This document shows positions 7,506 to 35,970 of a DNA stretch of 46,899 nt, in pieces. The position numbers and the translations under genes are program-made. Below the pieces are notes generated by a model that searched no databases, was not told the origin of the DNA, and saw only the letters and a list, made by a program, of their open reading frames with translations. The DNA comes from Legionellaceae bacterium (GTDB taxonomy: Bacteria > Pseudomonadota > Gammaproteobacteria > Legionellales > Legionellaceae). Each line of letters opens with the position of its first letter. Within the stretch, counting starts at the first letter, position 1. Location: positions 1 to 46,899 of the forward strand of contig JAUYSP010000019.1 in assembly GCA_030696305.1 (NCBI GenBank), given 5' to 3'.

Positions 7506-7507
7506 TG

Positions 7508-10208: not shown

Positions 10209-10210
10209 TC

Positions 10211-11203: not shown

Positions 11204-11225
11204 ACGGTTTATCTAGCGTATCATT

Positions 11226-11242: not shown

Positions 11243-11284
11243 CAATAGCATAAAAATGGATAATAAAAAAATGGAGCTTTAAAT

Positions 11285-16119: not shown

Positions 16120-16140
16120 ATGAGAGAAGAGAGAATAGTT

Positions 16141-16800: not shown

Positions 16801-16816
16801 ACTAAGAGAGAACATT

Positions 16817-17494: not shown

Positions 17495-17507
17495 CTGAGC
17501 TATTAAG

Positions 17508-18683: not shown

Positions 18684-18692
18684 GGAGATGTC

Positions 18693-19685: not shown

Positions 19686-19700
19686 CACAGGAGTGGTAAG

Positions 19701-20744
19701 GTGCTAAATGCAAACGGTGAAAAGAACGAATACAAAAACTTATTTTACAATATATTGCGTATTCGTCTGATTGAAGAAGAAATTGCTAAACGATATCCTG
19801 AAGGAAAGATGCGTTGTCCAACGCATCTTTCAATCGGCCAAGAAGCAATTCCTGTCGTAATTTGTGAACAACTGAGTTCGAGGGATTTGGCAGTGAGCTC
19901 GCATCGCGCTCATGCGCATTATTTAGCAAAGGGAGGAAGTCTTAAAGGCTTGATTGCTGAATTATATGGCAAAGTCACAGGATGTACTCATGGCCGCGGT
20001 GGTTCAATGAATCTGAGCGACCTTTCAGCTGGATTTGTCGCAAGTAAAGCAATTGTTGGTAATACAATTCCAGTTGGTGTTGGTTTAGCCTTTGCCCAAC
20101 AATTAAATAAGACCAAAGATATTACTTGTGTTTTTTTAGGTGATGCGGCGATTGAAGAGGGAGCATTTTACGAGTCTTTGAATTATGCTGTTTTGAAAAA
20201 GCTGCCAGTGTTATTTATCTGTGAAAATAATTTTTACTCTGTTAACTCCCATTTGAATTTGAGACAACCCAAAGACCGTTCGATTGCTGAAATGGCCAAA
20301 CATATTGGTGCTAAATCCGCGCAATTTGATGGTAATGATATTTTTTCTTATCGCGATCAAATTAAAAACATGGTCACAGACATACGAAATGGTGAAGGTC
20401 CTCAGTTTCTAGAGTTCTTTACTTATCGACATAAAGTGCATTGTGGCCATGAGGATGATTTAGATGCACGTTATCGACCTAAAGAAGAACTTGATTATTG
20501 GTTAAGTAAAGAACCTCTGATGTTATTGGAAAATAAATTGACATCAAACTCAGTTATTTCATTGGATGAAATTGTTGAATACCGGCAACGGATACAAAAT
20601 GAAGTGGATGAAGCATTTGATTTTGCTGAAAAATCGGCATTCCCTGACGCAGAAGATAGATTCAAATATCAATATGCTCATAGCGATTTATCATGGTTGC
20701 AAACGGCATTAACGCAGGAAATGGAGGGACTCTCAGTTGGATAA
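19701..20744 (+). CDS. Thiamine-diphosphate-dependent E1 alpha-like subunit, pair 1
   Basis: 347 residues from GTG 19701 (AGGAG upstream). It is homologous to pyruvate/acetoin dehydrogenase E1 alpha: S-H-R-A-H-A-H-Y-L-A-K-G-G (67-79), G-R-G-G-S-M, and the ThDP motif running from G-D-A (147-149) to E-N-N (175-177). The usual G-D-G is G-D-A here, while the second pair's alpha (30928) keeps G-D-G. No lipoyl E2 or E3 gene occurs in the window, so a dehydrogenase complex is unlikely. AviB1/AviB2 of avilamycin biosynthesis are E1 alpha/beta homologues involved in attaching a two-carbon branch to a sugar. A similar job on the product of 18693-19685 is my inference. It overlaps the beta gene by 8 bp. 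Confidence 0.85.
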   Translation: MLNANGEKNEYKNLFYNILRIRLIEEEIAKRYPEGKMRCPTHLSIGQEAIPVVICEQLSSRDLAVSSHRAHAHYLAKGGSLKGLIAELYGKVTGCTHGRGGSMNLSDLSAGFVASKAIVGNTIPVGVGLAFAQQLNKTKDITCVFLGDAAIEEGAFYESLNYAVLKKLPVLFICENNFYSVNSHLNLRQPKDRSIAEMAKHIGAKSAQFDGNDIFSYRDQIKNMVTDIRNGEGPQFLEFFTYRHKVHCGHEDDLDARYRPKEELDYWLSKEPLMLLENKLTSNSVISLDEIVEYRQRIQNEVDEAFDFAEKSAFPDAEDRFKYQYAHSDLSWLQTALTQEMEGLSVG

Positions 20745-21795
20745 TAAATTTATTAATTTAGTCAATGCAGCGTTTAAAAAAGCAATGCAACTGGATGACA
20801 AAGTTCTTTCGTATGGTCAGGGAATGAATGATCGGGTCCGTATGTTTGGTGCAACGGTTGGATTGGTTGAAGAATTTGGCGACGATCGCGCATTTGATGT
20901 ACCCACAGCTGAAAATGCTATGACTGGTGTTGGTATTGGCTTATGCATTCAAGGTTTTCGACCGGTGATTTCACATAATCGGTTAGATTTTATTTTGCTA
21001 GCTATGGATCAACTGATAAATGGTGCAGCAAAATGGAATAACGTATTTGCAGGTACTATGCCAATCAATCTCACTACACGCGTTATAGTTGGGCGTGGTT
21101 GGGGACAAGGGCCTACACATTGTCAGAGTTTACAATCGTGTTTCGCACAAATACCGGGACTAAAGGTCGTGATGCCATCGCTGGCGGAAGATGTGTATGG
21201 TTTGTTGTTATCTAGTATTTTTGACGATAACCCAGTGATTTTTATCGAACATCGTTGGTTGCATAACATCAACGCGAATCCATTACATGACCCATATCAA
21301 TTCGTTCCGTTGGGTAAAGCGCGCACCGTAACTAAAGGCACTGATATTACAATTGTATCCATGTCATACATGACAATTGAAGCACTGCACGCCGTTGAAT
21401 TCTTAAAAGAACATGGCGTTTCTTGTGACTTAATAGATTTAAGAACCATTAAGCCACTTGATTGGGATGCGATTTATTCTTCAGTTAGAAAAACCGGGAA
21501 ATTATTGGTATTAGATACCGGGTTTGAATTTTGTTCCGTAGCCAGTGAAATTGTTGCCAAAGTCTCTATGGATTGTTTCGATGACTTGACCATGGCTCCT
21601 CGGCGGCTAGCACTATCTGATCATTCTGTTTTGACATCCCCTACATTAGCTAATCCAGCCTATATCTATAGTGATGATATAGCTGACGAAGTATGTAACA
21701 TGTTGTGTTTGTCGATAGATATTCAACCGATGAGAGATAATCGAAATAAATATCTCAAAGATGTTCCAGGCAATTGGTTTGCAGGGCCATTTTAA
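20737..21795 (+). CDS. Thiamine-diphosphate-dependent E1 beta-like subunit, pair 1
   Basis: 352 residues from TTG 20737; GGAGGGA 7 nt upstream decides this start. E1 beta/transketolase C-terminal-type architecture: P-T-A-E-N-A-M with the conserved Glu that activates ThDP, A-M-D-Q-L-I-N-G-A-A-K-W, G-R-G-W-G-Q-G-P-T-H-C-Q-S, then the transketolase C-terminal domain (I-T-I-V-S-M-S-Y, I-D-L-R-T-I-K-P-L-D). It pairs with the overlapping alpha subunit. Canonical E1 beta has a run G-x-x-H-S-Q; here H-C-Q. It is clearly homologous to the beta at 31925, so the island contains two diverged pairs. Confidence 0.87.
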   Translation: MDNKFINLVNAAFKKAMQLDDKVLSYGQGMNDRVRMFGATVGLVEEFGDDRAFDVPTAENAMTGVGIGLCIQGFRPVISHNRLDFILLAMDQLINGAAKWNNVFAGTMPINLTTRVIVGRGWGQGPTHCQSLQSCFAQIPGLKVVMPSLAEDVYGLLLSSIFDDNPVIFIEHRWLHNINANPLHDPYQFVPLGKARTVTKGTDITIVSMSYMTIEALHAVEFLKEHGVSCDLIDLRTIKPLDWDAIYSSVRKTGKLLVLDTGFEFCSVASEIVAKVSMDCFDDLTMAPRRLALSDHSVLTSPTLANPAYIYSDDIADEVCNMLCLSIDIQPMRDNRNKYLKDVPGNWFAGPF

Positions 21796-21812
21796 GCATT
21801 AATGGAGATGAT

Positions 21813-23063
21813 GTGAAAAAAACAAGTGAAGTCAAATCAATTTATTTTGGCGTATCCGTATGGGGCCGAGCATTTTGTGAGTCCTTTATTAATTGTGCGT
21901 TGGCTTCACTATTAGCAGAAGGAAACATTCCCGCGCTTGGTAATTCCTCTAAAGCAAATCGCTTTATTATTTATACAACTAGAGAGGATTGGGACTGGTT
22001 AATAGTGCAACCTCTAGTTACCCTGTTACAACAACATATGGATATTGAGTTCATAGAAATGTCTCAATTATCTGAAATGGAGTATAAAAACCTTAATAAT
22101 GCACTGAATTCTCGCAAGTTGTACTTGATGACATTAGGCCATCGTCAGATTCTTGAAAAAATGTTTGCCGATAAAGCGGTTGGCAGTGTGATTATTCCGG
22201 ATTCGATCTACTCTAATGGCTCCATTCCTGCTGCTTATCAACACATTGTTAATGGAAAAACTGGCGTGTTGGTTTTTTGTCCTCGTTTTGCTACAACGGA
22301 TATCGTTGATGAGTTACGAAATAAAAACTATTTACAGATTAATCAGCCTTTAGTTATCGAATCCCGAGATTTAGTCGCAGCCGCAATGCGTCATCTCCAT
22401 ATTGATATGCAAATGCAGAAATGGGAGTCTGATTCTTTACCTGAGTTTATGTTAGAAACGAGTTGGACCTTGCCTGACAAATCAGGCATGTTATTTCATA
22501 CCTGGACGTGCTGGTGTGCATTTATTGATTATAATAAATTACCGGAGCATGATGTATCATCATTAGGTCGAAACACCATCGATGGTATTTATTTTGGCAA
22601 TAATTTAACACAAGAAACGTCTCATTTTATTACGGATTCGGACGAGTTTACTTTAATTAGCTTTAGCCCAAACCTTGAAAGAAAACAAACGCCACTTCAT
22701 TGGCTTTTGCGAAGTAACAAAGGTAAATTAATTAGCAAAATTGCTTTCGCTAAAAAAACGCTTCAAGGTACGTTCAACATGCAAACCGATGCATTTAAAT
22801 TGCAATTCGCTAAGCAGCCTATTTATATGCATACCGCTGACTTAACCCTTGCGGATATAAAATTAAAGACTCAAACACTCCCTTTAATTGACGAAATTTT
22901 AAAAAGCCAACTTACTTTTTTCGAAAAAATCTCATTGTATTTAAATGATCCCTTGTTATGGAAAAAAATAAAAAGGCGTTTAACTCATCATAAAATACTT
23001 TTTCCTATTATTTTTTCTATGGGATTCGTTGTTGGGGCCGCTGTCATGACAGCGTTGAGATAA
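21813..23063 (+). CDS. Unknown protein with C-terminal membrane segment, paralogue of 17508
   Basis: 416 residues from GTG 21813, chosen because GGAGATGAT lies just upstream; a longer reading from 21774 would overlap the E1 beta gene. It shares ordered landmarks with the 17508 protein (S-V-W-G, F-I-I-Y-T-T, I-I-P-D-S, I-E-S-R-D-L-V, and D-S-D-E-F-T-L near the middle). Unlike its relative it ends in a hydrophobic stretch (I-L-F-P-I-I-F-S-M-G-F-V-V-G-A-A-V-M) that should be a transmembrane helix or tail anchor. Function unknown; its position right after the E1-like pair suggests a role in making or transferring the modified sugar. Confidence 0.75.
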   Translation: MKKTSEVKSIYFGVSVWGRAFCESFINCALASLLAEGNIPALGNSSKANRFIIYTTREDWDWLIVQPLVTLLQQHMDIEFIEMSQLSEMEYKNLNNALNSRKLYLMTLGHRQILEKMFADKAVGSVIIPDSIYSNGSIPAAYQHIVNGKTGVLVFCPRFATTDIVDELRNKNYLQINQPLVIESRDLVAAAMRHLHIDMQMQKWESDSLPEFMLETSWTLPDKSGMLFHTWTCWCAFIDYNKLPEHDVSSLGRNTIDGIYFGNNLTQETSHFITDSDEFTLISFSPNLERKQTPLHWLLRSNKGKLISKIAFAKKTLQGTFNMQTDAFKLQFAKQPIYMHTADLTLADIKLKTQTLPLIDEILKSQLTFFEKISLYLNDPLLWKKIKRRLTHHKILFPIIFSMGFVVGAAVMTALR

Positions 23064-23073
23064 TAGAGGACTT

Positions 23074-24216
23074 ATGTATTTAATACAAAAGTTGCAAGAA
23101 CATGGATTGATGTGGTTTGTTCGTCGCGCTGTCAGTGAGTTGATTAAGCCAACCACATCACTGGGCAAATACTTCCGACCCTTTTCTTTGCTAATCTACG
23201 TGACAATCAGTAAGCCCATTAATTATTTTTCGAGTTTTCGCTTCACCGCCACGAAATCAAAAAGTAGTTTATATTTTTTCTATGATTTGGATATCGAACC
23301 TATTACCTACGATTTTGTCTGGGCACTATGTATTGCTAACGCAAAACGCGAGGAATTAGGTTTGACTTCTTTGCATGTGGTTTTTGTCCCGGGTAAAGTC
23401 CAGGGATTGCGAAAAGAATCATCAGATTACGAGCGCGCGGTAAGCAGTGATGCCAGGCATTGGCGCATATATTCTATTCTTATTCCTGCATTAAAATTAT
23501 TGCCTTGTAAGTTTGGCATTACGTTTTGTAATTCACGCGAAGACGCACGATTTATAAGACAAAAGCAAGCAAAGTTTGTATACCCTGATAAATATAACGT
23601 CACCTTTCCTATACCCTATGCTCCTGAGCAGGCAATGCAGTATTATCAAAACATGTTGCCTCTAAGAGCGGATAATCAAGCGCTACGCTATGTTTTAGAA
23701 TGGCTAAACCAACATGCACCGCATAAAAAAACGATTGTAATTACGCTTCGTCAATATGCATTTGCTCCTGATCGAAACAGCAATATAAATGCATGGGCTA
23801 AATTTGCAAAAACCTTAGATAACAATGAATTTTTTGTAGTTTTCGTTCCAGATATGGATCAGGCCTTAAACGAGCAGCCAAAGGCGTTAAGCGAGTTCCA
23901 CTTATTTACCCCAGCATGCTGGAATTTGAATTTACGTGCCGCACTCTATGAATCCGCCTATTTAAACTTAGGCGTAAATACAGGCCCTATGGCATTATGT
24001 TGGCTGAATGCACGTTGCAATTATATTACATTTAAAGCTTTTTCGACTACGGTACCTCAAGCTTCCATGGAAGTTATGATTGACAGAGGATTCATACCAA
24101 GCGAGAATCCCAAGTTCGCCACACCTTTTCAAAAATGGGTATGGCAAGAGGATGATTTTGAAATCATTCTTGAAGAATTTAAGTGGATGTGTGATTCATT
24201 AGAAAAAAGGATTTAA
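23074..24216 (+). CDS. Putative GT-B-like protein of unknown function
   Basis: 380 residues, ATG with AGAGGA upstream. Not recognised as a named family. The C-terminal half looks like the donor half of a GT-B enzyme: I-V-I-T-L-R-Q-Y-A-F-A-P-D-R-N-S-N near 220-240, F-V-V-F-V-P-D-M-D, then L-Y-E-S-A-Y-L-N-L-G-V-N-T-G-P-M-A-L, which resembles the substrate loop of heptosyltransferase-like and fucosyltransferase-like folds. The N-terminus has a basic amphipathic stretch (F-V-R-R-A-V-S-E-L) that could associate with membrane. It immediately precedes the exporter genes (1 bp gap), consistent with a late glycosyltransferase. Confidence 0.65.
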   Translation: MYLIQKLQEHGLMWFVRRAVSELIKPTTSLGKYFRPFSLLIYVTISKPINYFSSFRFTATKSKSSLYFFYDLDIEPITYDFVWALCIANAKREELGLTSLHVVFVPGKVQGLRKESSDYERAVSSDARHWRIYSILIPALKLLPCKFGITFCNSREDARFIRQKQAKFVYPDKYNVTFPIPYAPEQAMQYYQNMLPLRADNQALRYVLEWLNQHAPHKKTIVITLRQYAFAPDRNSNINAWAKFAKTLDNNEFFVVFVPDMDQALNEQPKALSEFHLFTPACWNLNLRAALYESAYLNLGVNTGPMALCWLNARCNYITFKAFSTTVPQASMEVMIDRGFIPSENPKFATPFQKWVWQEDDFEIILEEFKWMCDSLEKRI

Positions 24217-24217
24217 T

Positions 24218-25078
24218 GTGACGGAATTACAAGTAAATTCTACAGATTTCAATCAAATACTAACCAGCGACGATGCGATTGATAATGAAGTTATGACAGG
24301 TTGTCGCATGTATGCTCAAAGCTTTGTTCATTGGCGAATCTGGTTATACATGGCTGTATCAGAAATACGTCGACGTTATAGACGTACGCTTTTGGGGCCA
24401 TTTTGGGCTACGCTGAGTGTTGCCATTTTTATTGGATGCATGGGCATGGTATTTCCGATGTTGTGGCACACCGATGTTCAATCCTTTTTACCCTTTTTCT
24501 CGGCAGGTTTTATTGTTTGGACTTTTGTTTCCACTACTATAAATGATGCGTGTGGAACATTCATCGATGCAGGTAACTTAATCAAACAAGTTAATTTACC
24601 TTATCCCACTTATGCCTTCAGTGCAGTCACGCGCAATTTTTTAACCATGCTCCACCATTTAGCAGTGTATGTACCGATTATGCTGATTTTTCATGTGCCA
24701 ATTAATCTAAATACATTACTGTTTTTACCCGCTATGATTATTCTCTGTTTAACTTCAAGTTGGGTTTGCGTTTTATTGGGATTTTTGACCGCTCGTTTCC
24801 GAGATATGAAGCAAATTATTTCAAGTTTATTGCAGATTTCTATTTTTGTTACGCCCATATTTTGGCGGCCTTCACAACTTGGATCAAGCTTATATGCCCA
24901 AATCCTAGTTGCAATCAACCCATTGTATCATTTCGTAGAGATTGTGAGAGCGCCACTATTAGGCCAACAACCAGCGAGCATTGACTGGATTGCATCTATT
25001 GGTTTTTGTCTTCTTGGATGGCTTCTTACCATGAAAGTGGTTGGCAAATATTATAAACATCTAGTTTTTTGGTTGTAG
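24218..25078 (+). CDS. wzm: ABC-2 polysaccharide exporter permease (Wzm-type)
   Basis: 286 residues from GTG 24218 with AAGGA upstream. After a hydrophilic N-terminus comes the family segment V-S-E-I-R-R-R-Y-R-R-T-L-L-G-P-F-W, then six predicted membrane helices and the cytoplasmic-side L-T-A-R-F-R-D-M-K-Q-I coupling region; I-F-V-T-P-I-F-W-R-P is also typical. It forms a homodimeric channel with the Wzt ATPase and moves polyprenyl-linked polysaccharide across the inner membrane. The ATPase gene starts 13 bp downstream. This marks the locus as ABC-transporter dependent rather than Wzx/Wzy dependent; no Wzy-like polymerase was identified. Confidence 0.92.
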   Translation: MTELQVNSTDFNQILTSDDAIDNEVMTGCRMYAQSFVHWRIWLYMAVSEIRRRYRRTLLGPFWATLSVAIFIGCMGMVFPMLWHTDVQSFLPFFSAGFIVWTFVSTTINDACGTFIDAGNLIKQVNLPYPTYAFSAVTRNFLTMLHHLAVYVPIMLIFHVPINLNTLLFLPAMIILCLTSSWVCVLLGFLTARFRDMKQIISSLLQISIFVTPIFWRPSQLGSSLYAQILVAINPLYHFVEIVRAPLLGQQPASIDWIASIGFCLLGWLLTMKVVGKYYKHLVFWL

Positions 25079-25091
25079 GAAGGTGATGACA

Positions 25092-25838
25092 ATGAAATAT
25101 TTAGATGTTCGAAATGTAACAGTCGATATTCCAGTTTTTGATTCTAGTCGCAGTTTGCGTAAATCATTATATAACCGATTAGGTGGCACCATTAAACAAA
25201 CCACAGGGAAACACGTTTGTGTGCGTGCTTTAGATAATATCAGCTTTAGATTAGAAGAAGGTGATCGCGTAGGGCTGGTGGGGCACAACGGAGCTGGCAA
25301 ATCCACCTTGCTTAATGTACTTGCTGGTATTTATTTACCTCATACAGGTTCGATTAAAACTTCCGGAAAGGTAACGCCACTATTTAATATTAGCTTAGGT
25401 TTAGATATTGATGATACTGGATACGAAAACATATACACGATTGGTATGTATCTAGGTTTAACCCGACAAATCATTGATTCAAAACGAGATGACATTATTG
25501 CATTCAGTGAGCTAGGCGATTTTATTCATTTACCAGCCAGAACTTATTCTAGTGGTATGTTATTACGACTTAGTTTTGCAATTGTTACCTCTTTAGAAAC
25601 AGATATTTTATTAATGGACGAAGGAATTGGTGTAGGTGATGCCAATTTTGCAAAGAAAGCCACAGAACGGCTTGAGTCTTTTTATGAAAAAATAGGGATA
25701 TTAGTCATTGCCTCTCATTCGGATGATCTGATAAAAAAAATGTGTAATAAAGCAATATTGCTCGAGCATGGAAAAATTATCAAAATAGGTCCAGTGAATG
25801 ATATTTTGGAAATGTACCACCAGGAAGTGGTTTCTTAA
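25092..25838 (+). CDS. wzt: ABC polysaccharide exporter ATPase (Wzt-type, short form)
   Basis: 248 residues from ATG 25092, which has AGGAAGG 8 nt upstream; GTG 25083 and ATG 25086 are too close to that site. Walker A G-H-N-G-A-G-K-S-T (64-72), signature Y-S-S-G-M (152-156), Walker B I-L-L-M-D-E (172-177), and switch His in A-S-H-S-D-D. The protein ends shortly after the nucleotide-binding domain, so the C-terminal carbohydrate-binding domain of long Wzt proteins is absent; short forms usually do not need a chain-terminating modification for export. It closes the 9.2-25.8 kb operon. Confidence 0.92.
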   Translation: MKYLDVRNVTVDIPVFDSSRSLRKSLYNRLGGTIKQTTGKHVCVRALDNISFRLEEGDRVGLVGHNGAGKSTLLNVLAGIYLPHTGSIKTSGKVTPLFNISLGLDIDDTGYENIYTIGMYLGLTRQIIDSKRDDIIAFSELGDFIHLPARTYSSGMLLRLSFAIVTSLETDILLMDEGIGVGDANFAKKATERLESFYEKIGILVIASHSDDLIKKMCNKAILLEHGKIIKIGPVNDILEMYHQEVVS

Positions 25839-25860
25839 ATGAGAACCACCCAGATTGTAG

Positions 25861-25888
25861 GTCAGTTCAGCATCTACACTCAACTGAC
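25861..25888. terminator. Possible hairpin after wzt
   Basis: GTCAGTT (25861-25867) and AACTGAC (25882-25888) are a perfect 7-bp inverted repeat with a 14-nt spacer, 22 bp after the wzt stop. There is no T-run, so intrinsic termination is uncertain; together with the element that follows it may end the operon. Confidence 0.3.
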
Positions 25889-25894
25889 AGAGAG

Positions 25895-25977
25895 CACGTC
25901 ATCCAGAGCGCAGTCTTTTTGCGCGAAGGATCTCCTGAATGTTGCACAATCCGAGATCCTTGGCTCAGGATGACGTG
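25895..25977. repeat. 83-bp palindromic intergenic element with GTCATCC ends
   Basis: Perfect terminal inverted repeat CACGTCATCC (25895-25904) and GGATGACGTG (25968-25977), plus an inner perfect pair AAGGATCTC (25926-25934) and GAGATCCTT (25953-25961), and GAGC/GCTC between them. Transcribed RNA would fold into one long bulged hairpin. It belongs to the widespread GTCATCC...GGATCT class of dispersed bacterial repeats and is related to the in-frame copy at 14772-14804. Confidence 0.8.
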
Positions 25978-25995
25978 TCCGGGGAGTTACCTTAA

Positions 25996-26880
25996 ATGAA
26001 AAATGCATTAATCATTGGCATTGACTCCACCATTGGAAACGCGCTACGTCAAGAATTGACGACAGCTGGCTGGGCTGTTTTTGGAACAACTCGCCAAAAG
26101 CATCAAATGCAAGAAAACATCTTTTATTTAGATCTGGAGCATGTCGATGCATTCCACATAGAACTACCATTAGATGTTGTTTTTTTATGTGCAAGCGTAA
26201 CCAAAATAGCAACTTGCCGAGCTAATCCAGAATATTCACAACTTATCAATCGAGATGCACAAATTGCATTAGCACAATATTTCTTAAATAAATCAATTCA
26301 CGTGATTTTTCTATCAACAGTAGCCGTTTTTGATGGCCAAAAACCAGCTTATCGAATAGATGACATTCCAAATCCTACTACTATTTATGGAGAGCACAAA
26401 GCTGCGGCTGAACAAGCAATAATGGAAATGTCAGGAAAATGTTCTATTGTGAGATTATCTAAAGTATTAACCACCGATTACCCCCTTATTATGAATTGGC
26501 TTGATGCTCTTAAACAGGAGCGACTTATTGAGCCTTTCCATGATTTGCAGCTTTGTCCTATTTCTATTAATGTCGTAACCTATTGCTTAAAAGAAATTGC
26601 AAGACGAAGCTTATTTGGTATTATTCATCTCTCAGGAGAACAGGATGTGACTTATCTGGATGTTGCTATTTATTTAGCTGATGCTATGAATATAGGACGA
26701 AATTTAATAAAATCCAAATCGATTTTAGAGGTAGGTATGATGCCCAATGAAGTACTTCTTCACACTTCTTTAGATTATAGCGAATCGACAAAACTATTTG
26801 GAAACAAAGCGTGCTCATTGTCTGACACATTAAATGAAATGTATGGAACAACTTGGTATGAGACGAATGTATTTCAATAA
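25996..26880 (+). CDS. RmlD-like sugar-nucleotide reductase (SDR)
   Basis: 294 residues. N-terminal I-I-G-I-D-S-T-I-G (6-14) is a variant of the G-x-x-G-x-x-G dinucleotide motif with Asp in place of the second Gly. F-L-S-T-V-A-V-F-D-G and Y-G-E-H-K-A-A-A-E supply the Ser/Thr and Y-x3-K of the active site, in the style of dTDP-4-dehydrorhamnose reductase. It most likely reduces a 4-keto-deoxysugar. It stands alone between a palindromic repeat and a 354-bp gap, so it may be read through from the wzt operon or have its own promoter; GGGGAG lies upstream of the ATG. Confidence 0.78.
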   Translation: MKNALIIGIDSTIGNALRQELTTAGWAVFGTTRQKHQMQENIFYLDLEHVDAFHIELPLDVVFLCASVTKIATCRANPEYSQLINRDAQIALAQYFLNKSIHVIFLSTVAVFDGQKPAYRIDDIPNPTTIYGEHKAAAEQAIMEMSGKCSIVRLSKVLTTDYPLIMNWLDALKQERLIEPFHDLQLCPISINVVTYCLKEIARRSLFGIIHLSGEQDVTYLDVAIYLADAMNIGRNLIKSKSILEVGMMPNEVLLHTSLDYSESTKLFGNKACSLSDTLNEMYGTTWYETNVFQ

Positions 26881-27234
26881 GCTATATCGTAATTAATTTC
26901 TTGGTTTCTCATGAGATTAAGGATAGAGTGTGGATCTACTATGAGTTTTTGTATGGATTTTATCCTGCTACCTGGGGTGATCCTTGAATAAACAAGTATT
27001 CGTTTTTTATCCAACTTTAAAATAAAACTATTGCATGTAATTAATTATACATGGTATTGTTTGCTCAAAAAACGACGAATAACAAGGACGAATAACAAGA
27101 TTGTCGCGTTAACAATGAAGTTAGAAAAAAATCATAATAAATAAGAGATTTTTATGATTCACTAAAGTAACTAAAGTAATTCCATTTAAATATTGACACT
27201 ATATTCAATATAATACTTGCCTAGGGAAGGGTGT
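26881..27234. other. 354-bp intergenic region with direct repeats and an inverted repeat
   Basis: No gene seen. It holds a perfect tandem duplication GACGAATAACAAG (27075-27087, 27088-27100), a second direct repeat CTAAAGTAA (27162-27170, 27171-27179), and an inverted repeat AATCATAA (27130-27137) with TTATGATT (27152-27159). These lie within 160 bp upstream of the GT2-SDR fusion gene and could be operator sites. It also marks a shift to more AT-rich DNA. Confidence 0.7.
27186..27214 (+). promoter_or_regulatory. Possible promoter of the 27-kb gene block
   Basis: TATAAT at 27209-27214 is a perfect -10, 20 nt before the chosen ATG. At the proper distance upstream only TTAAAT (27186-27191) is found; a perfect TTGACA (27193-27198) is just 10 nt away, too close to act as its -35. 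The 12-mer ATATAATACTTG here (27208-27219) recurs exactly upstream of the second E1 alpha gene (30902-30913). Confidence 0.4.
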
Positions 27235-28998
27235 ATGCACAATAAATTAGGGATCAAAACAAAAATATCTTTGCGCGAACGATCCATTTCTGTTTTATTG
27301 CCAGCTTTAAATGAAGAGAAAAACTTAAAACCTACGGTTGAGCGTTTGCAGCAAGCTTTAAATGTTACTATGGATCAATATGAACTCATTATTATTAATG
27401 ATGGTAGTTCAGATAAAACAGGTGAAGTCGCCGATCAATTAGCAGCTCAGTTTGATAATATAAAGGTAAAGCATAATTCTTTATGCACGGGGCTGGGTAA
27501 TGTGTATGTGCAAGGTGCTGAGCTTGCTACCATGAATTATTTTTCCTATATCCCAAGTGACAATACATGGCCGTATCGCTCATTTGTTGAGCTTTTTGGG
27601 AACATGGGAAAAGCAGATATTATTACCTCATTTTCTAGTAATCCGGGAGTTAGACCCTGGAGTAGAAGAATAGTATCCAAGTCTTTCACAAAAACTATGA
27701 ACTTATTATTTGGTCTAGATCTTAAATATTTTAATGGCTTAACGATTTATCCTATAGAATATTTAAAGAGAAGGCCTATTTCAACATACGGCTTTGGATT
27801 TCAGTCTGAAGCTTTAATTAAAGCATTACAATTAGGTTACTCATTTATAGAGTTAGGCTTACCTATAGATGAACGCACAGCTGGTGGTTCTAAAGCTGTA
27901 AATATTAAGAATATTACGAGTGTTATTAGTACTATTTTTAGGATGTTTTGGAGTGTAAGAGTAAGTAAAAATTGGATTAAAAATCAAGTTGATCATAGTC
28001 CTTATAAAAAAAATACGTTGTTAGATGGAGCATTACCTCATTCAAATTTTAGTGCAGATGAAAATGGTTTTAAAAACGATGATAGTCGACCTCGTCAACA
28101 TGCTGTTAAAAATGATCCATATATAATTGTGGTAACTGGAGCAAGTTCGGGTATTGGAGCTGAACTAATTAAAAAATTAGCAGAAGATGGTCATCAGGTT
28201 TTTGCATGCGCAAGAAGTAAAACAAAACTAGAAAAAGCAACAAATAATGGTGAATTTGCTGAATTTACTGTTTGTGATGTTTCAGATGAAGAGCAAGTTT
28301 CGACTTTTGCAAAAATGTTAGAAAGTAAAGTTGATAGAGTGGATGTCTTAATTAATTGTGCTGGAAAATTTGGAGCTATTGGGAGCATTGAGGTAGCTAA
28401 TAGTGACGAATGGTTAGATACTATAAAGATAAATTTGTTTGGTCCTTATTTGACAACGAAGAAATTATTAAATCTTTTAAAGCAATCGAAACATCCGCGT
28501 GTAATTAATTTTTCCGGCGGTGGGGCATTTAATCCATTCCCAAATTTTAGTGCGTATGCTTGTTCAAAGGCTTCTTTAGTTAGGCTTACAGAAACATTGG
28601 CAATAGAATTAGCTCCATTTGGAATTATGGTTAATGCCTTGGCTCCAGGAAGAATTGCAACGCCAGCCCACGAAGCTATATTGTCTGCAGGTGCAACATT
28701 AGCAGGCTCTGCTCACTTCAAAAAGACCCAGCTCTTAATGACAGAAGGTGGGGCTTCCATGTCAAAAGTTATTGATTGTGTTCGTATGATGTTAACAGAA
28801 AAAATGTACGGTTTAACTGGTAAAACGATTAGTGCTAATTTTGATCCTTGGGATACCAGTTCATTTCAGGATAGTCTTATGGATATTTCAAGGTCGGATC
28901 TGTATACCATGTGTCGAATGAATATTGTCAATTTACCAGAGGGTAAACTTAAGGCACGAATGTCCACCGCTTGGGCGAAGCATGGTATAAAATTATGA
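27235..28998 (+). CDS. GT2 (polyprenyl-phosphate sugar synthase-like)-SDR fusion protein
   Basis: 587 residues from ATG 27235 (GGGAAGG upstream; a TTG at 27217 would overlap the -10 box). Residues about 17-245 are a GT2 domain like dolichyl/undecaprenyl-phosphate sugar synthases: V-L-L-P-A-L-N-E-E (20-28), N-D-G-S-S-D-K-T (55-62), and I-P-S-D-N-T-W (106-112) at the metal-site position. A charged linker (about 250-295) joins a classical SDR: T-G-A-S-S-G-I-G (301-308), N-C-A-G (374-377), S428 and Y441-x3-K445, then a 100-residue extension. Fusing these activities suggests that a lipid-linked sugar is made and then reduced or epimerised in place, as the separate SDR DprE2 does for decaprenyl-phosphate sugars. 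It overlaps the next gene by 4 bp. Confidence 0.85.
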   Translation: MHNKLGIKTKISLRERSISVLLPALNEEKNLKPTVERLQQALNVTMDQYELIIINDGSSDKTGEVADQLAAQFDNIKVKHNSLCTGLGNVYVQGAELATMNYFSYIPSDNTWPYRSFVELFGNMGKADIITSFSSNPGVRPWSRRIVSKSFTKTMNLLFGLDLKYFNGLTIYPIEYLKRRPISTYGFGFQSEALIKALQLGYSFIELGLPIDERTAGGSKAVNIKNITSVISTIFRMFWSVRVSKNWIKNQVDHSPYKKNTLLDGALPHSNFSADENGFKNDDSRPRQHAVKNDPYIIVVTGASSGIGAELIKKLAEDGHQVFACARSKTKLEKATNNGEFAEFTVCDVSDEEQVSTFAKMLESKVDRVDVLINCAGKFGAIGSIEVANSDEWLDTIKINLFGPYLTTKKLLNLLKQSKHPRVINFSGGGAFNPFPNFSAYACSKASLVRLTETLAIELAPFGIMVNALAPGRIATPAHEAILSAGATLAGSAHFKKTQLLMTEGGASMSKVIDCVRMMLTEKMYGLTGKTISANFDPWDTSSFQDSLMDISRSDLYTMCRMNIVNLPEGKLKARMSTAWAKHGIKL

Positions 28999-29522
28999 AT
29001 CCTTTAGTTATCGCTTTAATTGCAGGCATTTTATATTTAATTCAAATTACCTTCATTTTTAATAGGTTTAATATTCAAAATAAAGCAAAATTGATGGTTA
29101 AGTTATGGGTCGTTAATTTACCAATGGTAGTCGCAGGTTGCTTTATATTTGATAAATATGAGATTTTTGGGAAAATTTATCAAATTAATAATTTTGAAGT
29201 TAGCCTTTTTTTAACGATTTTTTTCTATTTTTCAGGGTTTTTTGGTGGAATATTACAACTATATAATTTAGCAGATCGAGGGTTTTCACTTAGAGTGCTA
29301 ATTGACATGGAGGAAAATATTCAGCAAGGTGTATCGTTAAATAATGTCATGCAGAGATATAGCCAGGGAAAAGGGATTTCTTGGATGTATGAAAAGAGAC
29401 TCAATGATTTAAGTCAAAACGACTTAATTTTTATATTCCATAATTTAGTTGAAAATACTTCACGTGGTAATTGTTTATCAAGGTTATTCATTCAATTAAG
29501 AAAAATTATTAATTTACGCTAG
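28995..29522 (+). CDS. Unknown small membrane protein
   Basis: 175 residues from ATG 28995, which overlaps the fusion gene's TGA (ATGA), so translation is probably coupled; an earlier in-frame start at 28971 lies inside the fusion gene. There are three hydrophobic segments (about 4-22, 36-54, 67-90), then a hydrophilic C-terminal half with E-E-N-I-Q-Q-G-V-S-L-N-N-V and a helical D-L-S-Q-N-D-L. Family not recognised. Its coupling suggests it may anchor or assist the GT2-SDR protein at the membrane (inference). Confidence 0.65.
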   Translation: MNPLVIALIAGILYLIQITFIFNRFNIQNKAKLMVKLWVVNLPMVVAGCFIFDKYEIFGKIYQINNFEVSLFLTIFFYFSGFFGGILQLYNLADRGFSLRVLIDMEENIQQGVSLNNVMQRYSQGKGISWMYEKRLNDLSQNDLIFIFHNLVENTSRGNCLSRLFIQLRKIINLR

Positions 29523-29538
29523 AATAGATGGATTTGTT

Positions 29539-30069
29539 ATGTGTACTACCTTATTACTAAGTTTTTTTTGGTTTCTTATATTTATAATCACGCATAATGT
29601 TGCTTTTTTCGTACTTGATAATCAGTCAAGAGCAAAGATAATCATAAATACTTTCAAGTTGTCTATTTGTGCTTTATTTATTTCAATTTGGTTATATTCA
29701 AAATATAGTCATTTTTTCAATAATCATGAATTTTATCCTGTATTTTGGAATTATTTGTATGGCTTAGTTATTTCAGTATCTTTTTTTATATTATACATGC
29801 CATTTTATTATACTGTTGCATCATCATTGTCAATCCAATCAATGATCAAAATATTTGACAATAGTTTGGCTGGAAAAAACACAGAGCTTGACTGTTTACG
29901 TGAGCAATTTACTTCCAAAGAGTTAATGCAGGATAGAATGTCTCTTATGATTGACAATGGTTATATTTATGAATTTGAAAACAAATATTATTTAACTACA
30001 AAAGGAAAGAGAACGGCGAAAATTTTTTCTCAAATTAAAAATATATGGAAATTAGGGGCTGGTGGTTAA
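29539..30069 (+). CDS. Unknown small membrane protein with winged-helix-like tail
   Basis: 176 residues with four hydrophobic segments (about 5-24, 34-53, 70-92, and a weaker one near 95) followed by a cytosolic tail. The tail, S-K-E-L-M-Q-D-R-M-S-L-M-I-D-N-G-Y-I then Y-Y-L-T-T-K-G-K-R, looks like a helix-turn-helix plus wing (compare winged-helix proteins ending in L-T-x-x-G). The membrane part is in the position and size class of the previous gene, 16 bp upstream. Function unknown; no recognised family. Confidence 0.62.
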   Translation: MCTTLLLSFFWFLIFIITHNVAFFVLDNQSRAKIIINTFKLSICALFISIWLYSKYSHFFNNHEFYPVFWNYLYGLVISVSFFILYMPFYYTVASSLSIQSMIKIFDNSLAGKNTELDCLREQFTSKELMQDRMSLMIDNGYIYEFENKYYLTTKGKRTAKIFSQIKNIWKLGAGG

Positions 30070-30111
30070 TAAGTTGTTCGGTGATATTGTAAAAATTAGT
30101 GGAGAGTTAAA

Positions 30112-30690
30112 ATGAGACAATTAGTAAATTGTGAAGAAATACCGGAAGAATATCCTTTTATGATAAAGAAATACCAAGGATTTTTTTATGTAATATGTAG
30201 CGCTTTTAATTTGGTAGAGCATGATCTTAATCTTAATGATGCTTATCTACGTGCCTCTCAGAAACGTCAAGATTTAATTATTGAATTTAAAAAGATCGGC
30301 ATGAATATACCATCTTACAATTTAGGTGATATAAAAACTATTTCTCCCATACGTCGCACGGTGAAAAAATTATTCACTTTAGGGACTATATTATTTTTGA
30401 TTTTAGGCATGTATTTTGCCTCGATTATCACAGATAAAATAATCGAGCTTCCCTCATTATTAAAAGAAAAAATAAAAGCTAGCACAGTATCTATTGTTTC
30501 AAATCCGGATGCTTTATTTCGTGCTACGCAAACAATTGCACAAAAAATTGATACTGCTAATCCTGAAACCAAAGCGCAATTTCAGAGTAATGTTCGTAAA
30601 ATAGTACAATTTTTTGAGCCTATGATAGCTGAAATGGAGCCATTAAAGACGAATAAAATTATGCTAGAAAATGAGAAAAAACAGACATAA
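30112..30690 (+). CDS. Unknown single-pass membrane protein
   Basis: 192 residues; GGAGAG upstream of the ATG. A hydrophilic N-terminal region (about 1-82) rich in Glu, Lys and Tyr precedes one strong membrane helix (about 84-106: L-F-T-L-G-T-I-L-F-L-I-L-G-M-Y-F-A). A mostly helical C-terminal part with an Ala/Thr/Gln-rich stretch ends in charged residues. Third of three small unknown membrane proteins between the GT2-SDR fusion and the second E1-like pair. No family recognised. Confidence 0.6.
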   Translation: MRQLVNCEEIPEEYPFMIKKYQGFFYVICSAFNLVEHDLNLNDAYLRASQKRQDLIIEFKKIGMNIPSYNLGDIKTISPIRRTVKKLFTLGTILFLILGMYFASIITDKIIELPSLLKEKIKASTVSIVSNPDALFRATQTIAQKIDTANPETKAQFQSNVRKIVQFFEPMIAEMEPLKTNKIMLENEKKQT

Positions 30691-30724
30691 ATAGTTTCTG
30701 GTAATGAATCAGTATTCCTTTACT

Positions 30725-30800
30725 AGGATCTGTTGGGGCAATTCATATTTCGACATCCCGCGGGACGTAGGCCTTGTGGAAATGAATTGTCAACAGACCC
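30725..30800. repeat. Palindromic repeat element, copy C (most complete)
   Basis: Ends CTAGGATCTGTTG (30723-30735) and CAACAGACCCTAG (30791-30803) form an imperfect terminal inverted repeat, extended inward by AATTCAT (30740-30746) and ATGAATT (30782-30788). The centre has a perfect CCCGCGGG (30757-30764). TA sits outside each end (30723-30725 region and 30801-30802). It is the reference copy for the elements at 1411-1498 and 3285-3344. It encodes nothing and has the size of a miniature inverted-repeat element. Confidence 0.8.
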
Positions 30801-30880
30801 TAGTAATGTTTAATTAAATGAAAATAGATTGTGGTAGCATGATCGAATGCAGGGGGTTTATACAGCTTATTGTTAAAGAA

Positions 30881-30908
30881 TTGTAGCTGAAAGAGGCCAA
30901 AATATAAT
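30881..30908 (+). promoter_or_regulatory. Likely promoter for the second E1-like pair
   Basis: TTGTAG (30881-30886), a 16-nt spacer, and a perfect TATAAT (30903-30908), 19 nt before the ATG at 30928. The -10 region shares the exact 12-mer ATATAATACTTG with the one upstream of the GT2-SDR fusion, hinting at common control of the two transcripts. Confidence 0.5.
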
Positions 30909-30927
30909 ACTTGATTTAAGGTTTTGT

Positions 30928-31911
30928 ATGTACACGGAAAATGAAAATAGATATCGAGCACTTTATAAAGAAATTCTACGTCTACGTTTAAGCGAAGAAA
31001 AATTGACTGAACTATATAAGGCTCAAGAGATGCGAACTCCTACTCATTTTGGTACGGGGCAAGAAGCAATCGCGGTTGGTGTTTGTCAAGCTTTAGCTAA
31101 TGATGATGTCGTTTATAGTCATCATCGATGTCATAATCATTATTTAGCAAAAGGTGGGAGCTTTTTTAAGCTTACTGCTGAGTTATATGGTAGAGAGGCA
31201 GGATGCTCAAATGGTCGAGGTGGTTCGGTACACTTAACAGCTCGTGATCAGGGTTTCATTATTTCTTCAGCGATTTTAGCACAAACTATAGCCGTAGCTA
31301 CAGGCAGTGCTTTAGCCTTTAAAATGGATAACAATAAAAACGTCGCTGTTACTTTTTTTGGTGATGGAGCTTGTGAGGAAGGTGCTTGTTATGAAAGCTT
31401 AAATTATGCAGCAATAAATAAATTGCCTGTTTTATATGTTTGTGAAAATAATTTATATTCAACAGAAAGCACTGTTAAAATTAGACAACCCGAAGGAACA
31501 AGTTTGGCTGAGCGTGCAGCTGCTTTCATGGTGCCTTCTGAGACAATTGATGGAAATAATGTTTTTACGGTGTTCGAGACTGTGCAAGCTTTATTGCCTC
31601 AAATTAGAAAGGGTGGTGGTCCGTTTTTTCTGGAATGTATGACATATCGCTGGCGAGAGCATGTTGGTCCCAATTTTGATTATGAAGCGGGGGGCCGTAC
31701 CTACCGAACAGAGGAAGAGCAAAAATATTGGATTCAAAATAAATGTCCTTTAAAACAAGCTGAACAATTGTTATTTGAAAAAAATCTTGTGACACATGAT
31801 GAAATCGTTCACTGGAAACAAGAGCTGCAAGCAGAAATTGATTTAAGTGTAATCCATGCGAAAGAAAGTGCTTGGCCTAATATTGCGGATATGTACGCAA
31901 ACGTTGATTAA
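30928..31911 (+). CDS. Thiamine-diphosphate-dependent E1 alpha-like subunit, pair 2
   Basis: 327 residues, ATG with AAGG upstream. It shows S-H-H-R-C-H-N-H-Y-L-A-K-G-G (64-77), G-R-G-G-S-V, and a canonical ThDP motif from G-D-G (145-147) to E-N-N (173-175). It is related to the alpha of pair 1 across its whole length (shared M-R-x-P-T-H, G-Q-E-A-I, H-Y-L-A-K-G-G-S, A-E-L-Y-G). Neighbours are membrane glycosyltransferases and a flippase-like protein, not E2/E3. The role is likely carbon-unit transfer onto a sugar, possibly a different acceptor or donor than pair 1 (inference). The beta gene follows 13 bp after the stop. Confidence 0.85.
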   Translation: MYTENENRYRALYKEILRLRLSEEKLTELYKAQEMRTPTHFGTGQEAIAVGVCQALANDDVVYSHHRCHNHYLAKGGSFFKLTAELYGREAGCSNGRGGSVHLTARDQGFIISSAILAQTIAVATGSALAFKMDNNKNVAVTFFGDGACEEGACYESLNYAAINKLPVLYVCENNLYSTESTVKIRQPEGTSLAERAAAFMVPSETIDGNNVFTVFETVQALLPQIRKGGGPFFLECMTYRWREHVGPNFDYEAGGRTYRTEEEQKYWIQNKCPLKQAEQLLFEKNLVTHDEIVHWKQELQAEIDLSVIHAKESAWPNIADMYANVD

Positions 31912-31924
31912 AATGGAGTTTTTG

Positions 31925-32956
31925 GTGAGAAAAATTAAATATACAGATGCCTTATCTGAAGGTCTTGTTCAGGCAATGGATAGAGATCTTAATCTGTTTG
32001 TTACTGGTATTTCGGTAGACTATTCAGCTGGTGCTTTCGGAACAACAACTGAAGCATTAAAAAAATTTCCTACTCGTGTGTTTGATGCTCCGTCTATGGA
32101 AAATGCATTAACTGGAATAGCTATTGGTGCTGCAGCGATGGGGAAGCGGCCAATTATTTATCATCCACGTAATGATTTTATGTTTTTAGCGCTAGATCAA
32201 ATGATTAATTTGGCTGCTAAATGGAAATATATGTATGCGGGAAACGCAGGAAATATGCCATTAGTGGTAAGAACCGTAGTTGGTAAAGGTTGGGGACAGG
32301 GGGCTACTCACTCTCAGAGTTTACATAGTATTTTAGCGCATTTCCCAGGATTACATGTAGTGATGCCAGCTACTCCTTCGGATGCAAAGGGATTGTTGAT
32401 TGCCGCAACACAAAGCACTTCCCCTGTAGTTATTATTGAGCACAGAGCTTTGTATAATATCGAGGGTGAAGTTTCTGAAGAGTATTATTCAACACCTATA
32501 GGAAAAGCAAATACTCTTCGTGAAGGTAAGGATATAACCATTGTAGCCACTTCTTTGATGGTACAGGAGGCGCTAATTGCGGCCGAAAATTTAGAAAAAG
32601 AAGGTGTAGATGTAGAGGTAGTAGATATTAGATCTATAAGACCATTAGATGAAACTGCAGTTCTTAGATCTATAGAAAAAACTGGTCATCTTTTAGTTAT
32701 TGATACCAGTTGGGAGTTGTGTGGGTTTGCCAGTGAAATTGCTGCGTTAGCTGCTGAAAAAGGCTACTACTATTTAAAAGGTCCGGTGCGTCGTATGTCT
32801 TTAGCAAATTGTCCTGCACCAGTTTCTTATCCGCTAGAGACCGCTTTTTATCCCAAACCGTCTAATATTGCCAAGACAATTTTAACAATGTTAGGGAAAA
32901 ATAGTGATAACTTTGTGACCATTGATAAAGAGGATACGTTTAAAGGTCCCTATTAA
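31925..32956 (+). CDS. Thiamine-diphosphate-dependent E1 beta-like subunit, pair 2
   Basis: 343 residues from GTG 31925, chosen because GGAG sits 5-6 nt upstream and the protein then begins V-R-K-I-K-Y-T-D-A-L like other E1 beta chains; ATG 31913 is the alternative. It has P-S-M-E-N-A-L with the ThDP-activating Glu, A-L-D-Q-M-I-N-L-A-A-K-W, and G-K-G-W-G-Q-G-A-T-H-S-Q-S (H-S-Q retained, unlike pair 1). Transketolase C-terminal domain landmarks I-T-I-V-A-T-S-L and V-D-I-R-S-I-R-P-L-D follow. The C-terminus ends G-P-Y, and the pair 1 beta ends G-P-F. Confidence 0.87.
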   Translation: MRKIKYTDALSEGLVQAMDRDLNLFVTGISVDYSAGAFGTTTEALKKFPTRVFDAPSMENALTGIAIGAAAMGKRPIIYHPRNDFMFLALDQMINLAAKWKYMYAGNAGNMPLVVRTVVGKGWGQGATHSQSLHSILAHFPGLHVVMPATPSDAKGLLIAATQSTSPVVIIEHRALYNIEGEVSEEYYSTPIGKANTLREGKDITIVATSLMVQEALIAAENLEKEGVDVEVVDIRSIRPLDETAVLRSIEKTGHLLVIDTSWELCGFASEIAALAAEKGYYYLKGPVRRMSLANCPAPVSYPLETAFYPKPSNIAKTILTMLGKNSDNFVTIDKEDTFKGPY

Positions 32957-35963: not shown

Positions 35964-35970
35964 GTTTTTG

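What the first reader, a model, noticed from the sequence alone, without database searches (positions are those of the whole stretch)
19701..32956. Two diverged E1 alpha/beta pairs in one glycan island, without E2 or E3
Seen: complete ThDP-enzyme pairs at 19701-21795 and 30928-32956, both embedded among sugar genes; no lipoyl-domain or lipoamide dehydrogenase gene in 46.9 kb. Known: AviB1/AviB2 (E1-like) take part in adding a two-carbon branch in avilamycin biosynthesis, and YerE, another ThDP enzyme, does so for yersiniose. Inference: each pair makes a different branched-chain sugar, pair 1 acting on the 4-ketosugar from the adjacent RmlB-like enzyme, pair 2 linked with the lipid-linked route. 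Two such pairs in one locus would be unusual.
Basis: partly seen in the sequence, partly recalled or inferred. Interest (0 to 1): 0.78.

Follow-up and report, generated by a model that had tools for sequence, protein, structure and literature searches.

The report
Two sugar-branching enzyme pairs, glycan island
Two pairs of genes that look like the first part of the pyruvate dehydrogenase complex most likely attach a two-carbon branch to cell-surface sugars instead, and relatives of them sit in sugar gene clusters of many unrelated bacteria.

Summary
Both E1 alpha/beta pairs are real and intact. No lipoyl, E2 or E3 gene lies on their contig, and the genome's three E2 genes can be assigned to other E1s. 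The pairs are not a recent duplication: an AU test rejects them as sisters (p 4.8e-30). Both belong to one E1 family, separate from PDH/BCKDH-type E1s, whose usual marks are an alpha loop TYRW-x-E-H-x-G-P, a WGQG motif in beta, and a beta C-terminal tail F-x-G-P-F/Y (68 of 80 relatives). Pair 2 groups (100/100) with six Streptomycetaceae pairs; in five of those six loci the genes scanned include an antibiotic-type glycosyltransferase or an NDP-hexose 2,3-dehydratase, one locus being paulomycin-like. It therefore most likely adds an acetyl branch to a ketosugar, here perhaps on a lipid-linked route. Pair 1 lies in another clade of the family; 49 of 68 tailed loci carry heptose-type isomerase or kinase genes. 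A 2025 review ties this E1 class mainly to antibiotics and branched LPS sugars to YerE. The branched-sugar reading is well supported for pair 2, plausible for pair 1. Two pairs in one locus is uncommon but recurs. No chemistry was shown.

The parts
19701..20744 (+). Pair 1 E1 alpha (ThDP-binding subunit)
   Evidence: PF00676 189.7 bits; loop TYRHKVHCGHE; relatives G018 71%, G057 63%
20737..21795 (+). Pair 1 E1 beta, WGQG motif, tail WFAGPF
   Evidence: PF02779/PF02780; trees
30928..31911 (+). Pair 2 E1 alpha
   Evidence: PF00676 198.6 bits; loop TYRWREHVGPN
31913..32956 (+). Pair 2 E1 beta, WGQG motif, tail TFKGPY (open frame from 31856)
   Evidence: AF2 model mean pLDDT 94.4
9207..10208 (+). 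SDR (epimerase-like) of the pair 1 module
   Evidence: tblastn relatives in 43 of 80 loci (SDR families may cross-match, its cluster spans 32 loci)
10211..11203 (+). SDR (GalE-like)
11285..12901 (+). HldE-like bifunctional kinase/nucleotidyltransferase with reversed domain order
   Evidence: CTP_transf_like 32-133, PfkB 197-491; relatives in 31 of 80 loci
12898..13860 (+). Gfo/Idh oxidoreductase
13857..15233 (+). UDP-glucose/GDP-mannose dehydrogenase family protein
   Evidence: in-frame insert
15226..16119 (+). SDR
16120..16800 (+). Class I methyltransferase, often next to E1 pairs
   Evidence: relatives in 28 of 80 loci
16817..17494 (+). Second methyltransferase
18693..19685 (+). RmlB-like SDR, TSE triad, directly before pair 1
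   Evidence: close relatives 66-85% in L039, L063, L082, L085, L212
24218..25838 (+). ABC exporter genes (ABC2_membrane, ABC_tran; Wzm/Wzt-like by inference), island of pair 1
25996..26880 (+). RmlD-like reductase
27217..28998 (+). GT2 fused to SDR, polyprenyl-phosphate-sugar synthase-like by inference, upstream of pair 2
   Evidence: GT2 part similar to a GT2 of L092, SDR part to the SDRs beside YerE-like enzymes
32971..33942 (+). LPG_synthase_TM protein (flippase-like guess)
33942..39114 (+). Two large multi-TM proteins (33942-35963, 35929-39114), guessed to be GT-C-type transferases
   Evidence: about 9 and 13 TM by a rough hydropathy count; no Pfam match for the first, only a weak fn3 for the second

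Best explanation
Both pairs are E2-independent E1-type carboligases for sugar building. Each enzyme (alpha2beta2 by analogy) decarboxylates pyruvate on ThDP and, instead of passing the acetyl unit to lipoamide, adds it to the carbonyl of a ketosugar, giving a two-carbon C-branch that SDR, methyl- or aminotransferase partners then modify. Pair 2 belongs to the clade of E1 pairs in Streptomycetaceae deoxysugar-type loci and works, by inference, in a lipid-linked route (GT2-SDR fusion, flippase-like and GT-C-like proteins). Pair 1 belongs to a different clade and, by inference, serves the sugar of the ABC-exported polysaccharide made by the 9207-25838 island, with a 4-ketosugar from 18693 or from an HldE-activated heptose as acceptor. 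Shown: family, fold of one beta, cofactor motifs, no E2 on the contig, the clades and the contexts. Inferred: reaction, donor, acceptor, product.
For: No lipoyl, E2 or E3 match on the contig. By tblastn (E <= 1e-12), 0 of 80 related loci match any of the genome's three E2s or its E3, while 23 of 44 control E1 loci match at least one E2 (the E3 query matched 0 of 44 controls, so it says little). Beta tree with five PDB references: the wider family (100 rows, 16 of them tail-less) is apart from PDH/BCKDH at SH-aLRT 99. Joined alpha+beta tree: pair 2 with L105 and L092 100/100, and with six Streptomycetaceae pairs 100/100; both still 100 with seven tail-less rows added. Deoxysugar-type genes in five of the six Streptomycetaceae loci, L193 paulomycin-like. 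Pau11 inactivation abolishes paulomycins (PMC4425429, passages). KbDH-alpha/beta couples pyruvate to ketones in vitro, and aldgamycin knockout/feeding is reported (PMC12247030, section 7). Tail, WGQG and loop marks.
Against: No chemistry or glycan data. Pair 1 is outside the clade that holds the Streptomycetaceae pairs. Seven of 80 loci also carry a YerE-like enzyme, so some loci already hold another branching enzyme. 49 of 68 tailed loci have heptose-type genes that simple ketosugar branching does not need. L193 was called paulomycin-like by gene content, not by name. L194 showed no antibiotic-type GT or 2,3-dehydratase among the two genes scanned, though tblastn found DegT and NTP_transferase relatives there. 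The tail is not a perfect clade mark: tail-less L124, L125, L137, L138 and L140 fall among tailed rows.
Confidence: 0.65

Rival explanations
1. Pair 1 (and its heptose-linked relatives) is a transketolase/DXS-like synthase: it moves a C2 unit onto an aldose phosphate, giving a longer ketose phosphate that the SIS isomerase, HldE/GHMP kinase, HAD phosphatase and nucleotidyltransferase turn into a nucleotide-activated higher sugar, as a transaldolase does in the lincosamide octose route (recalled).
For: HldE, SIS or GHMP in 49 of 68 tailed loci, with HAD and NTP_transferase in 11 and 26 of 80; HldE, SIS, HAD, SDR9207 and MT16120 in 0 of 44 control E1 loci; DXS and transketolase are the next fold matches after E1-beta (Z about 34 and 30-33).
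Against: KbDH, the member reported in vitro, is limited to pyruvate as donor (PMC12247030); a 1-deoxy-ketose from pyruvate could not be isomerised by SIS. Heptose genes are common in LPS loci, and the controls were short and not sugar loci.
Confidence: 0.2
2. Ordinary extra 2-oxoacid dehydrogenase E1s that borrow an E2 encoded elsewhere.
For: E1 fold and cofactor motifs; three E2 genes in the genome.
Against: Two of the three E2s lie on the contig of another E1 (C23, C78), and the third (C84, beside an E3) is assigned to the SucA-like E1 of C27 by inference; scores under the PDH cut-offs; separate group in the trees; tail beyond the E1-beta C-terminus; sugar-gene context.
Confidence: 0.07
3. 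They transfer an acetyl or other acyl unit to a non-ketone acceptor (amine, carrier or flavin) in glycan decoration.
For: Frequent DegT aminotransferases beside the pairs (36 of 80 loci).
Against: No member of the class is said to do this in the passages I read; DegT may instead aminate the new branch ketone, as the branch is transaminated in kibdelomycin (PMC12247030).
Confidence: 0.08

Closest known systems
alpha-keto acid dehydrogenase 2 (alphaKADH2) sugar-branching pairs: AviB1/AviB2, Pau11/Pau12, EvdU5/EvdS3, KbDH-alpha/beta, aldgamycin
   Same: E1 alpha/beta pair in a sugar locus, here without E2/E3; pair 2 in one clade with pairs of Streptomycetaceae deoxysugar-type loci
   Different: Found in exported or lipid-linked glycan islands; pair 1 in another clade whose relatives are tied to HldE/SIS genes; the review ties the known class mainly to antibiotics. 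The named sequences themselves were not compared
YerE (yersiniose)
   Same: ThDP enzyme that adds a C2 branch to a 4-ketosugar for LPS
   Different: Single chain with TPP_enzyme N/M/C domains (seen here in the YerE-like neighbours); such enzymes sit in the same locus as an E1 pair in 7 of 80 loci
Pyruvate / branched-chain dehydrogenase E1
   Same: Fold, ThDP motifs, alpha/beta split (beta model Z 47.0 to human PDH E1-beta)
   Different: Separate group in the trees, changed alpha loop, WGQG motif, extra C-terminal tail, no E2/E3 on the contig
Coxiella burnetii CBU0674-CBU0678 O-antigen region
   Same: By description: phosphoheptose isomerase, two SDRs and a reversed-domain HldE-like enzyme (CBU0678) of unknown function, like the window's 9207-10211-11285
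   Different: I did not compare sequences; 'pyruvate dehydrogenase' does not occur in the main text of PMC5843353

Membership tests
alphaKADH2 / AviB-type sugar-branching E1 pair | E1 alpha + beta with ThDP motif | tested here: met
alphaKADH2 / AviB-type sugar-branching E1 pair | Encoded in a sugar locus without E2/E3 | tested here: met
alphaKADH2 / AviB-type sugar-branching E1 pair | Same clade as pairs of deoxysugar-antibiotic-type loci (pair 2) | tested here: met
   100/100 with six Streptomycetaceae pairs; the loci are unnamed except L121, and the genes of each were scanned only in part
alphaKADH2 / AviB-type sugar-branching E1 pair | Same clade as pairs of deoxysugar-antibiotic-type loci (pair 1) | tested here: not met
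   Pair 1 lies in another clade of the same wider family
alphaKADH2 / AviB-type sugar-branching E1 pair | Direct grouping with AviB1/AviB2 or Pau11/Pau12 sequences | not tested
   I did not have those sequences; L193 stands in by gene content
alphaKADH2 / AviB-type sugar-branching E1 pair | Pyruvate + ketosugar gives an acetyl branch | not testable with these tools
   needs enzymology
PDH/BCKDH complex E1 | Passes NCBIfam PDH E1 cut-offs | tested here: not met
   alpha 280 (both) vs 393.85; beta 245.6 and 290.5 vs 321
PDH/BCKDH complex E1 | E2 encoded with it | tested here: not met
PDH/BCKDH complex E1 | Clusters with solved PDH/BCKDH E1-beta chains | tested here: not met
   (SH-aLRT 99 for the 100-row set without the five PDB rows)
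YerE-like decarboxylase | TPP_enzyme N/M/C domains in one chain | tested here: not met
   (only a TPP_enzyme_C match at 19.6 bits, under its 21.9 cut-off, in pair 2 alpha)
Transketolase / DXS | C2 transfer to an aldose phosphate | not testable with these tools
   Pfam gives E1_dh in alpha; DXP_synthase_N scores 22.5 and 27.5 bits, just over its 21.2 cut-off

The most novel reading that the evidence does not exclude
A cross-phylum class of E1-type enzymes (alpha loop HxGP, WGQG, FxGPF tail) is a main, so far unassigned, two-carbon branching or extending enzyme of bacterial surface glycans. The large pair-1-like part of it works on HldE-activated heptoses and makes undescribed C9-type branched sugars, while pair-2-like enzymes branch lipid-linked sugars. 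This island holds both.
Probability: 0.3. Interest if true: 0.8.

Novelty: new variant of a known kind. Interest (0 to 1): 0.62.

Why it matters
Two papers I read in part assign branched LPS sugars to YerE-like enzymes and E1-type branching mainly to antibiotics. This family puts E1-type enzymes in sugar loci of many phyla and gives sequence marks that separate them from PDH E1s, which automatic annotation would otherwise blur. It predicts a set of branched or higher sugars. It also links them to the reversed-domain HldE-like enzyme whose C. burnetii counterpart (by description) is needed for full-length LPS and has no known function.

Tried and rejected
Recent duplication: rejected by tree and AU test. 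A second AU test (pair 1 with the Streptomycetaceae pairs) did not finish and was not repeated. The tail as a strict clade mark: rejected; it needs at least 5 changes in the beta tree and 3 in the joined tree after I added back seven tail-less rows that my choice of 60 for one search had left out. L050 looked like a natural alpha-beta fusion, but the frames differ. The 'broken' C78 E2 is intact. Three paper searches found nothing or only an unrelated paper. That E2 docks at the E1-beta C-terminus is recalled; my search for it found nothing. AviB/Pau sequences were not at hand. ORF calling by longest frame hid E1 genes in high-GC loci; it was redone on all frames, and that script ended with an error after printing L142, so L143-L156 were not printed there. 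A pattern search of the window for a guessed repeat gave 0. No structural match for the tail itself was sought.
Full report
WHAT IS THERE. The window carries two complete E1 alpha/beta pairs on the + strand: 19701-21795 and 30928-32956. Both alphas match PF00676 (189.7 and 198.6 bits) and both betas match Transket_pyr and Transketolase_C. ThDP motifs are present, GDA...NN in pair 1 and GDG...NN in pair 2. NCBIfam's PDH models are missed: alpha 280 (both) against 393.85; beta 245.6 and 290.5 against 321. The pairs share 45% (alpha) and 40% (beta).

NO E2 OR E3 NEARBY. In the own genome (2,563,596 bases, 84 contigs) PF00676 finds five matches: the two here and one each on C78, C23 and C27. The names AceE-like (C23, frame 943 aa) and SucA-like (C27, 808 aa) are inferred from frame length. 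PF00198 finds three E2s, on C23, C84 and C78. Biotin_lipoyl (six) and Pyr_redox_dim (two) all lie off the window's contig. The C78 E2 reads through to its own stop, and its E1-beta is PDH-like (353 bits to G. stearothermophilus PDH). Two E2s thus share a contig with another E1; the C84 E2, beside an E3, is assigned to the C27 E1 by inference.

A FAMILY WITH THREE MARKS. 68 of 80 loci have a beta ending in [FY]-x-G-P-[FY]; 12 do not, and of these L099, L100 and L107 match only part of the query near a contig end. Over 86 betas (these loci plus window and L039-L042), WGQG and tail occur together in 73, neither in 9, one alone in 4; in the 20 lower-ranking betas L137-L156 neither occurs. One of the two scan patterns contained WGQG, so its frequency is biased; the tail and the alpha loop were not used as patterns. 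The alpha loop TYRWREHCGPN stands where the human PDH alignment has TYRYHGHSMSD; 75 of 82 alphas fit a loose H-x-G pattern and 58 of 82 a strict ThDP pattern, the rest not examined one by one. An AlphaFold2 model of pair 2 beta has mean pLDDT 94.4, with 87 for residues 331-340 and 64 for 341-347. Its best matches, fifteen solved E1-betas, align up to model residue 329 (human PDH Z 47.0, rmsd 1.2), so about 18 residues lie beyond; the aligner leaves out long stretches under pLDDT 60, so this end is weakly tested. That the E1-beta end is where E2 docks in PDH is recalled.

PHYLOGENY. In a beta tree of 123 rows with five PDB references, 100 rows (84 tailed, 16 tail-less) form a set apart from PDH, BCKDH and other E1s at SH-aLRT 99; the tail needs at least 5 changes there against 33 in shuffles. 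In a 130-row tree pair 2 joins L105, L092 and six Streptomycetaceae betas at 99. In a careful tree of joined alpha+beta (60 rows that I chose from 123 pairs, LG+C20, no PDB rows), 49 tailed rows form one clade (100/97) inside 52 rows (100/100). Pair 2 joins L105 (Rhodospirillales) and L092 (Polynucleobacter) at 100/100, and these join six Streptomycetaceae pairs at 100/100. Pair 1 joins G018 and G057 at 100/100 within a 14-row clade at 100/99. My 60 rows left out tail-less L124, L125, L137, L138, L140, L119 and L126; with them back (quick tree, 67 rows) the placements of both pairs stay at 100, the wide family (59 rows, 10 tail-less) has 100, but the tailed rows are no longer one clade (at least 3 changes). 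The AU test rejects the two window pairs as sisters (lnL difference 425, p 4.8e-30).

THE STREPTOMYCETACEAE ANCHOR. Of 297 genomes in the family of L121's genome, 74 have a match at E <= 1e-80 to a profile that includes L121; six are full-length (510-587 bits), the next best is 357 bits and stops before the tail. All six betas have WGQG and end in GF-x-GP[FY]. I scanned part of the genes of each locus. L121 has an EryCIII-like glycosyltransferase, DegT, SDR, NDP-hexose 2,3-dehydratase and Gfo/Idh. L193 has an acyltransferase of 389 aa, an aldo-keto reductase, an MFS exporter, the E1 pair, a P450-like protein, an EryCIII-like GT, a 3,5-epimerase and a 2,3-dehydratase, close to pau6, pau7, pau9, pau11/12, pau14, pau15, pau16 in PMC4425429 (passages); pau10 (EF-G) was not seen. 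L190 has a 2,3-dehydratase, SDR and DegT; L191 an EryCIII-like GT, two MFS proteins and a Zn-ADH. L192 showed an EryCIII-like GT and an acyltransferase. L194 showed an NTP_transferase and a gamma-glutamyltranspeptidase and tblastn relatives of DegT. So three of six have a 2,3-dehydratase, four an EryCIII-like GT, five at least one. [quoted passage not shown] PMC12247030 (section 7 read whole; passages) reports ketone carboligation in vitro by KbDH-alpha/beta, limited to pyruvate as donor, and knockout/feeding evidence for aldgamycin. PMC10338323 (passages) still calls EvdU5/EvdS3 a hypothesis.

CONTEXT OF PAIR 1. G018 keeps the island around the pair in the same order; G057 keeps most of it, without 16817, 17508, 18693 and with the ABC genes before the pair. 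The order SDR, SDR, HldE-like, Gfo/Idh, UGD, SDR, methyltransferase, E1 alpha also appears in L097, with one antisense frame called in between, and large parts of it in L082, L085, L105 and L212; all five of HldE, Gfo/Idh, UGD, SDR15226 and MT16120 are in 4 of 80 loci. By tblastn, of 80 loci: SDR9207 43, DegT 36, HldE 31, MT16120 28, NTP_transferase 26, SIS 24, Zn-ADH 16, UGD 13, GHMP 12, HAD 11, SDR15226 9, YerE-like 7, Gfo/Idh 6. Of the 68 tailed loci, 65 have at least one of the 15 sugar-gene markers and 55 at least two; HldE, SIS or GHMP occur in 49. Of 44 tail-less control E1 loci, 0 have HldE, SIS, HAD, SDR9207 or MT16120, 1 GHMP, 1 NTP_transferase, 5 DegT. Most controls span about 4 kb against up to 21 kb, and none was chosen as a sugar locus, so this shows a link to sugar loci, not a shared pathway. 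E2/E3 queries hit 0 of 80 related loci; 23 of 44 controls match an E2, 0 of 44 the E3. 18693 has close relatives (66-85%) with the TSE triad in L039, L063, L082, L085 and L212; 19 more of 75 loci have a looser best-hit relative (27-41%), 17 of which did not fit my triad pattern.

CONTEXT OF PAIR 2. Upstream lies a GT2-SDR fusion, downstream an LPG_synthase_TM protein and two large membrane proteins (about 9 and 13 TM by a rough count). Around L092's pair are a GT2, a GtrA_DPMS_TM protein and large membrane proteins. L105's pair has instead DegT, carbamoyltransferase and formyltransferase genes, so the setting is not constant. I read the window's setting as a lipid-linked sugar route (inference).

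HOW COMMON. Of 140 genomes of the order, alpha relatives at or above 42% are in G018, G057, G061 and G082 besides the own genome; G082's pair lies in a third clade. Of 299 Pseudomonadota genomes, 21 have a beta match at or above 465 bits to the profile's end; 6 of the 21 have two, in G000 and G922 on one contig (tail letters looked at only in G000, G922, G854 and G1063). G922 and L089 each hold two tailed pairs in one locus. The 68 tailed loci carry 21 phylum labels, 40 of the loci being Pseudomonadota and most other labels occurring once or twice; most records are MAGs, where misbinning is possible.

LITERATURE. PMC12247030 says YerE-like enzymes serve mainly cell structures such as LPS and alphaKADH2 mainly natural products (passage); PMC4753412 (passages) likewise contrasts AviB-type pairs of Gram-positives with YerE in Gram-negatives. 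My searches listed no title on E1 pairs in LPS loci; most listed papers were not opened and the library lacks most subscription journals, so this is no proof of absence. PMC5843353 (passages) describes CBU0678 as an HldE homologue with reversed domains, required for full-length LPS, function unknown. The window's 11285-12901 has the same reversed order.

VERDICT. Observation confirmed; branching interpretation partly supported, strongly for pair 2 by clade and context, moderately for pair 1, with a transketolase-like higher-sugar role as main rival. The class is known from antibiotics; its spread in glycan loci, its marks and its heptose-type partners are what looks new.

Noticed in passing
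window 13857-15233, insert from about 14772: The UGD gene carries an in-frame insert of about 22 aa (NSVIPSEARDL...) absent from the G018 and G057 relatives; its 26-base core occurs three times in the genome (C2 twice, here once).
   Followed up: partly
L048, L053, L063, L064, L067, L085, L092: A YerE-like ThDP enzyme lies in the same locus as an E1 pair in 7 of 80 loci, often with an SDR and an FkbM methyltransferase.
   Followed up: partly
window 28971-30069; L092:11037-12016; L096:17191-18317: Two adjacent small membrane proteins, several with an LTxKG(K/R)-like C-terminal motif, recur beside sugar genes; similarity to the window's is weak, 13-23%.
   Followed up: partly
window 9207-12901: SDR, SDR and reversed-domain HldE-like genes parallel CBU0676-CBU0678 of the C. 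burnetii O-antigen region, by description only (PMC5843353, PMC3539893, passages).
   Followed up: partly
window 6321-8971 (-): An MBOAT protein with a neighbour of 394 aa looks like an O-acetylation pair.
   Followed up: no
L045:9465-11474, L046:3144-5120: Other genomes of the same family carry single-chain fused alpha-beta E1s without the tail or WGQG.
   Followed up: no
L077, L102, L118, L119, L120, L123, L126: Tail-less relatives branch off near the base of the family, several in loci with B12-radical SAM or DegT genes.
   Followed up: no
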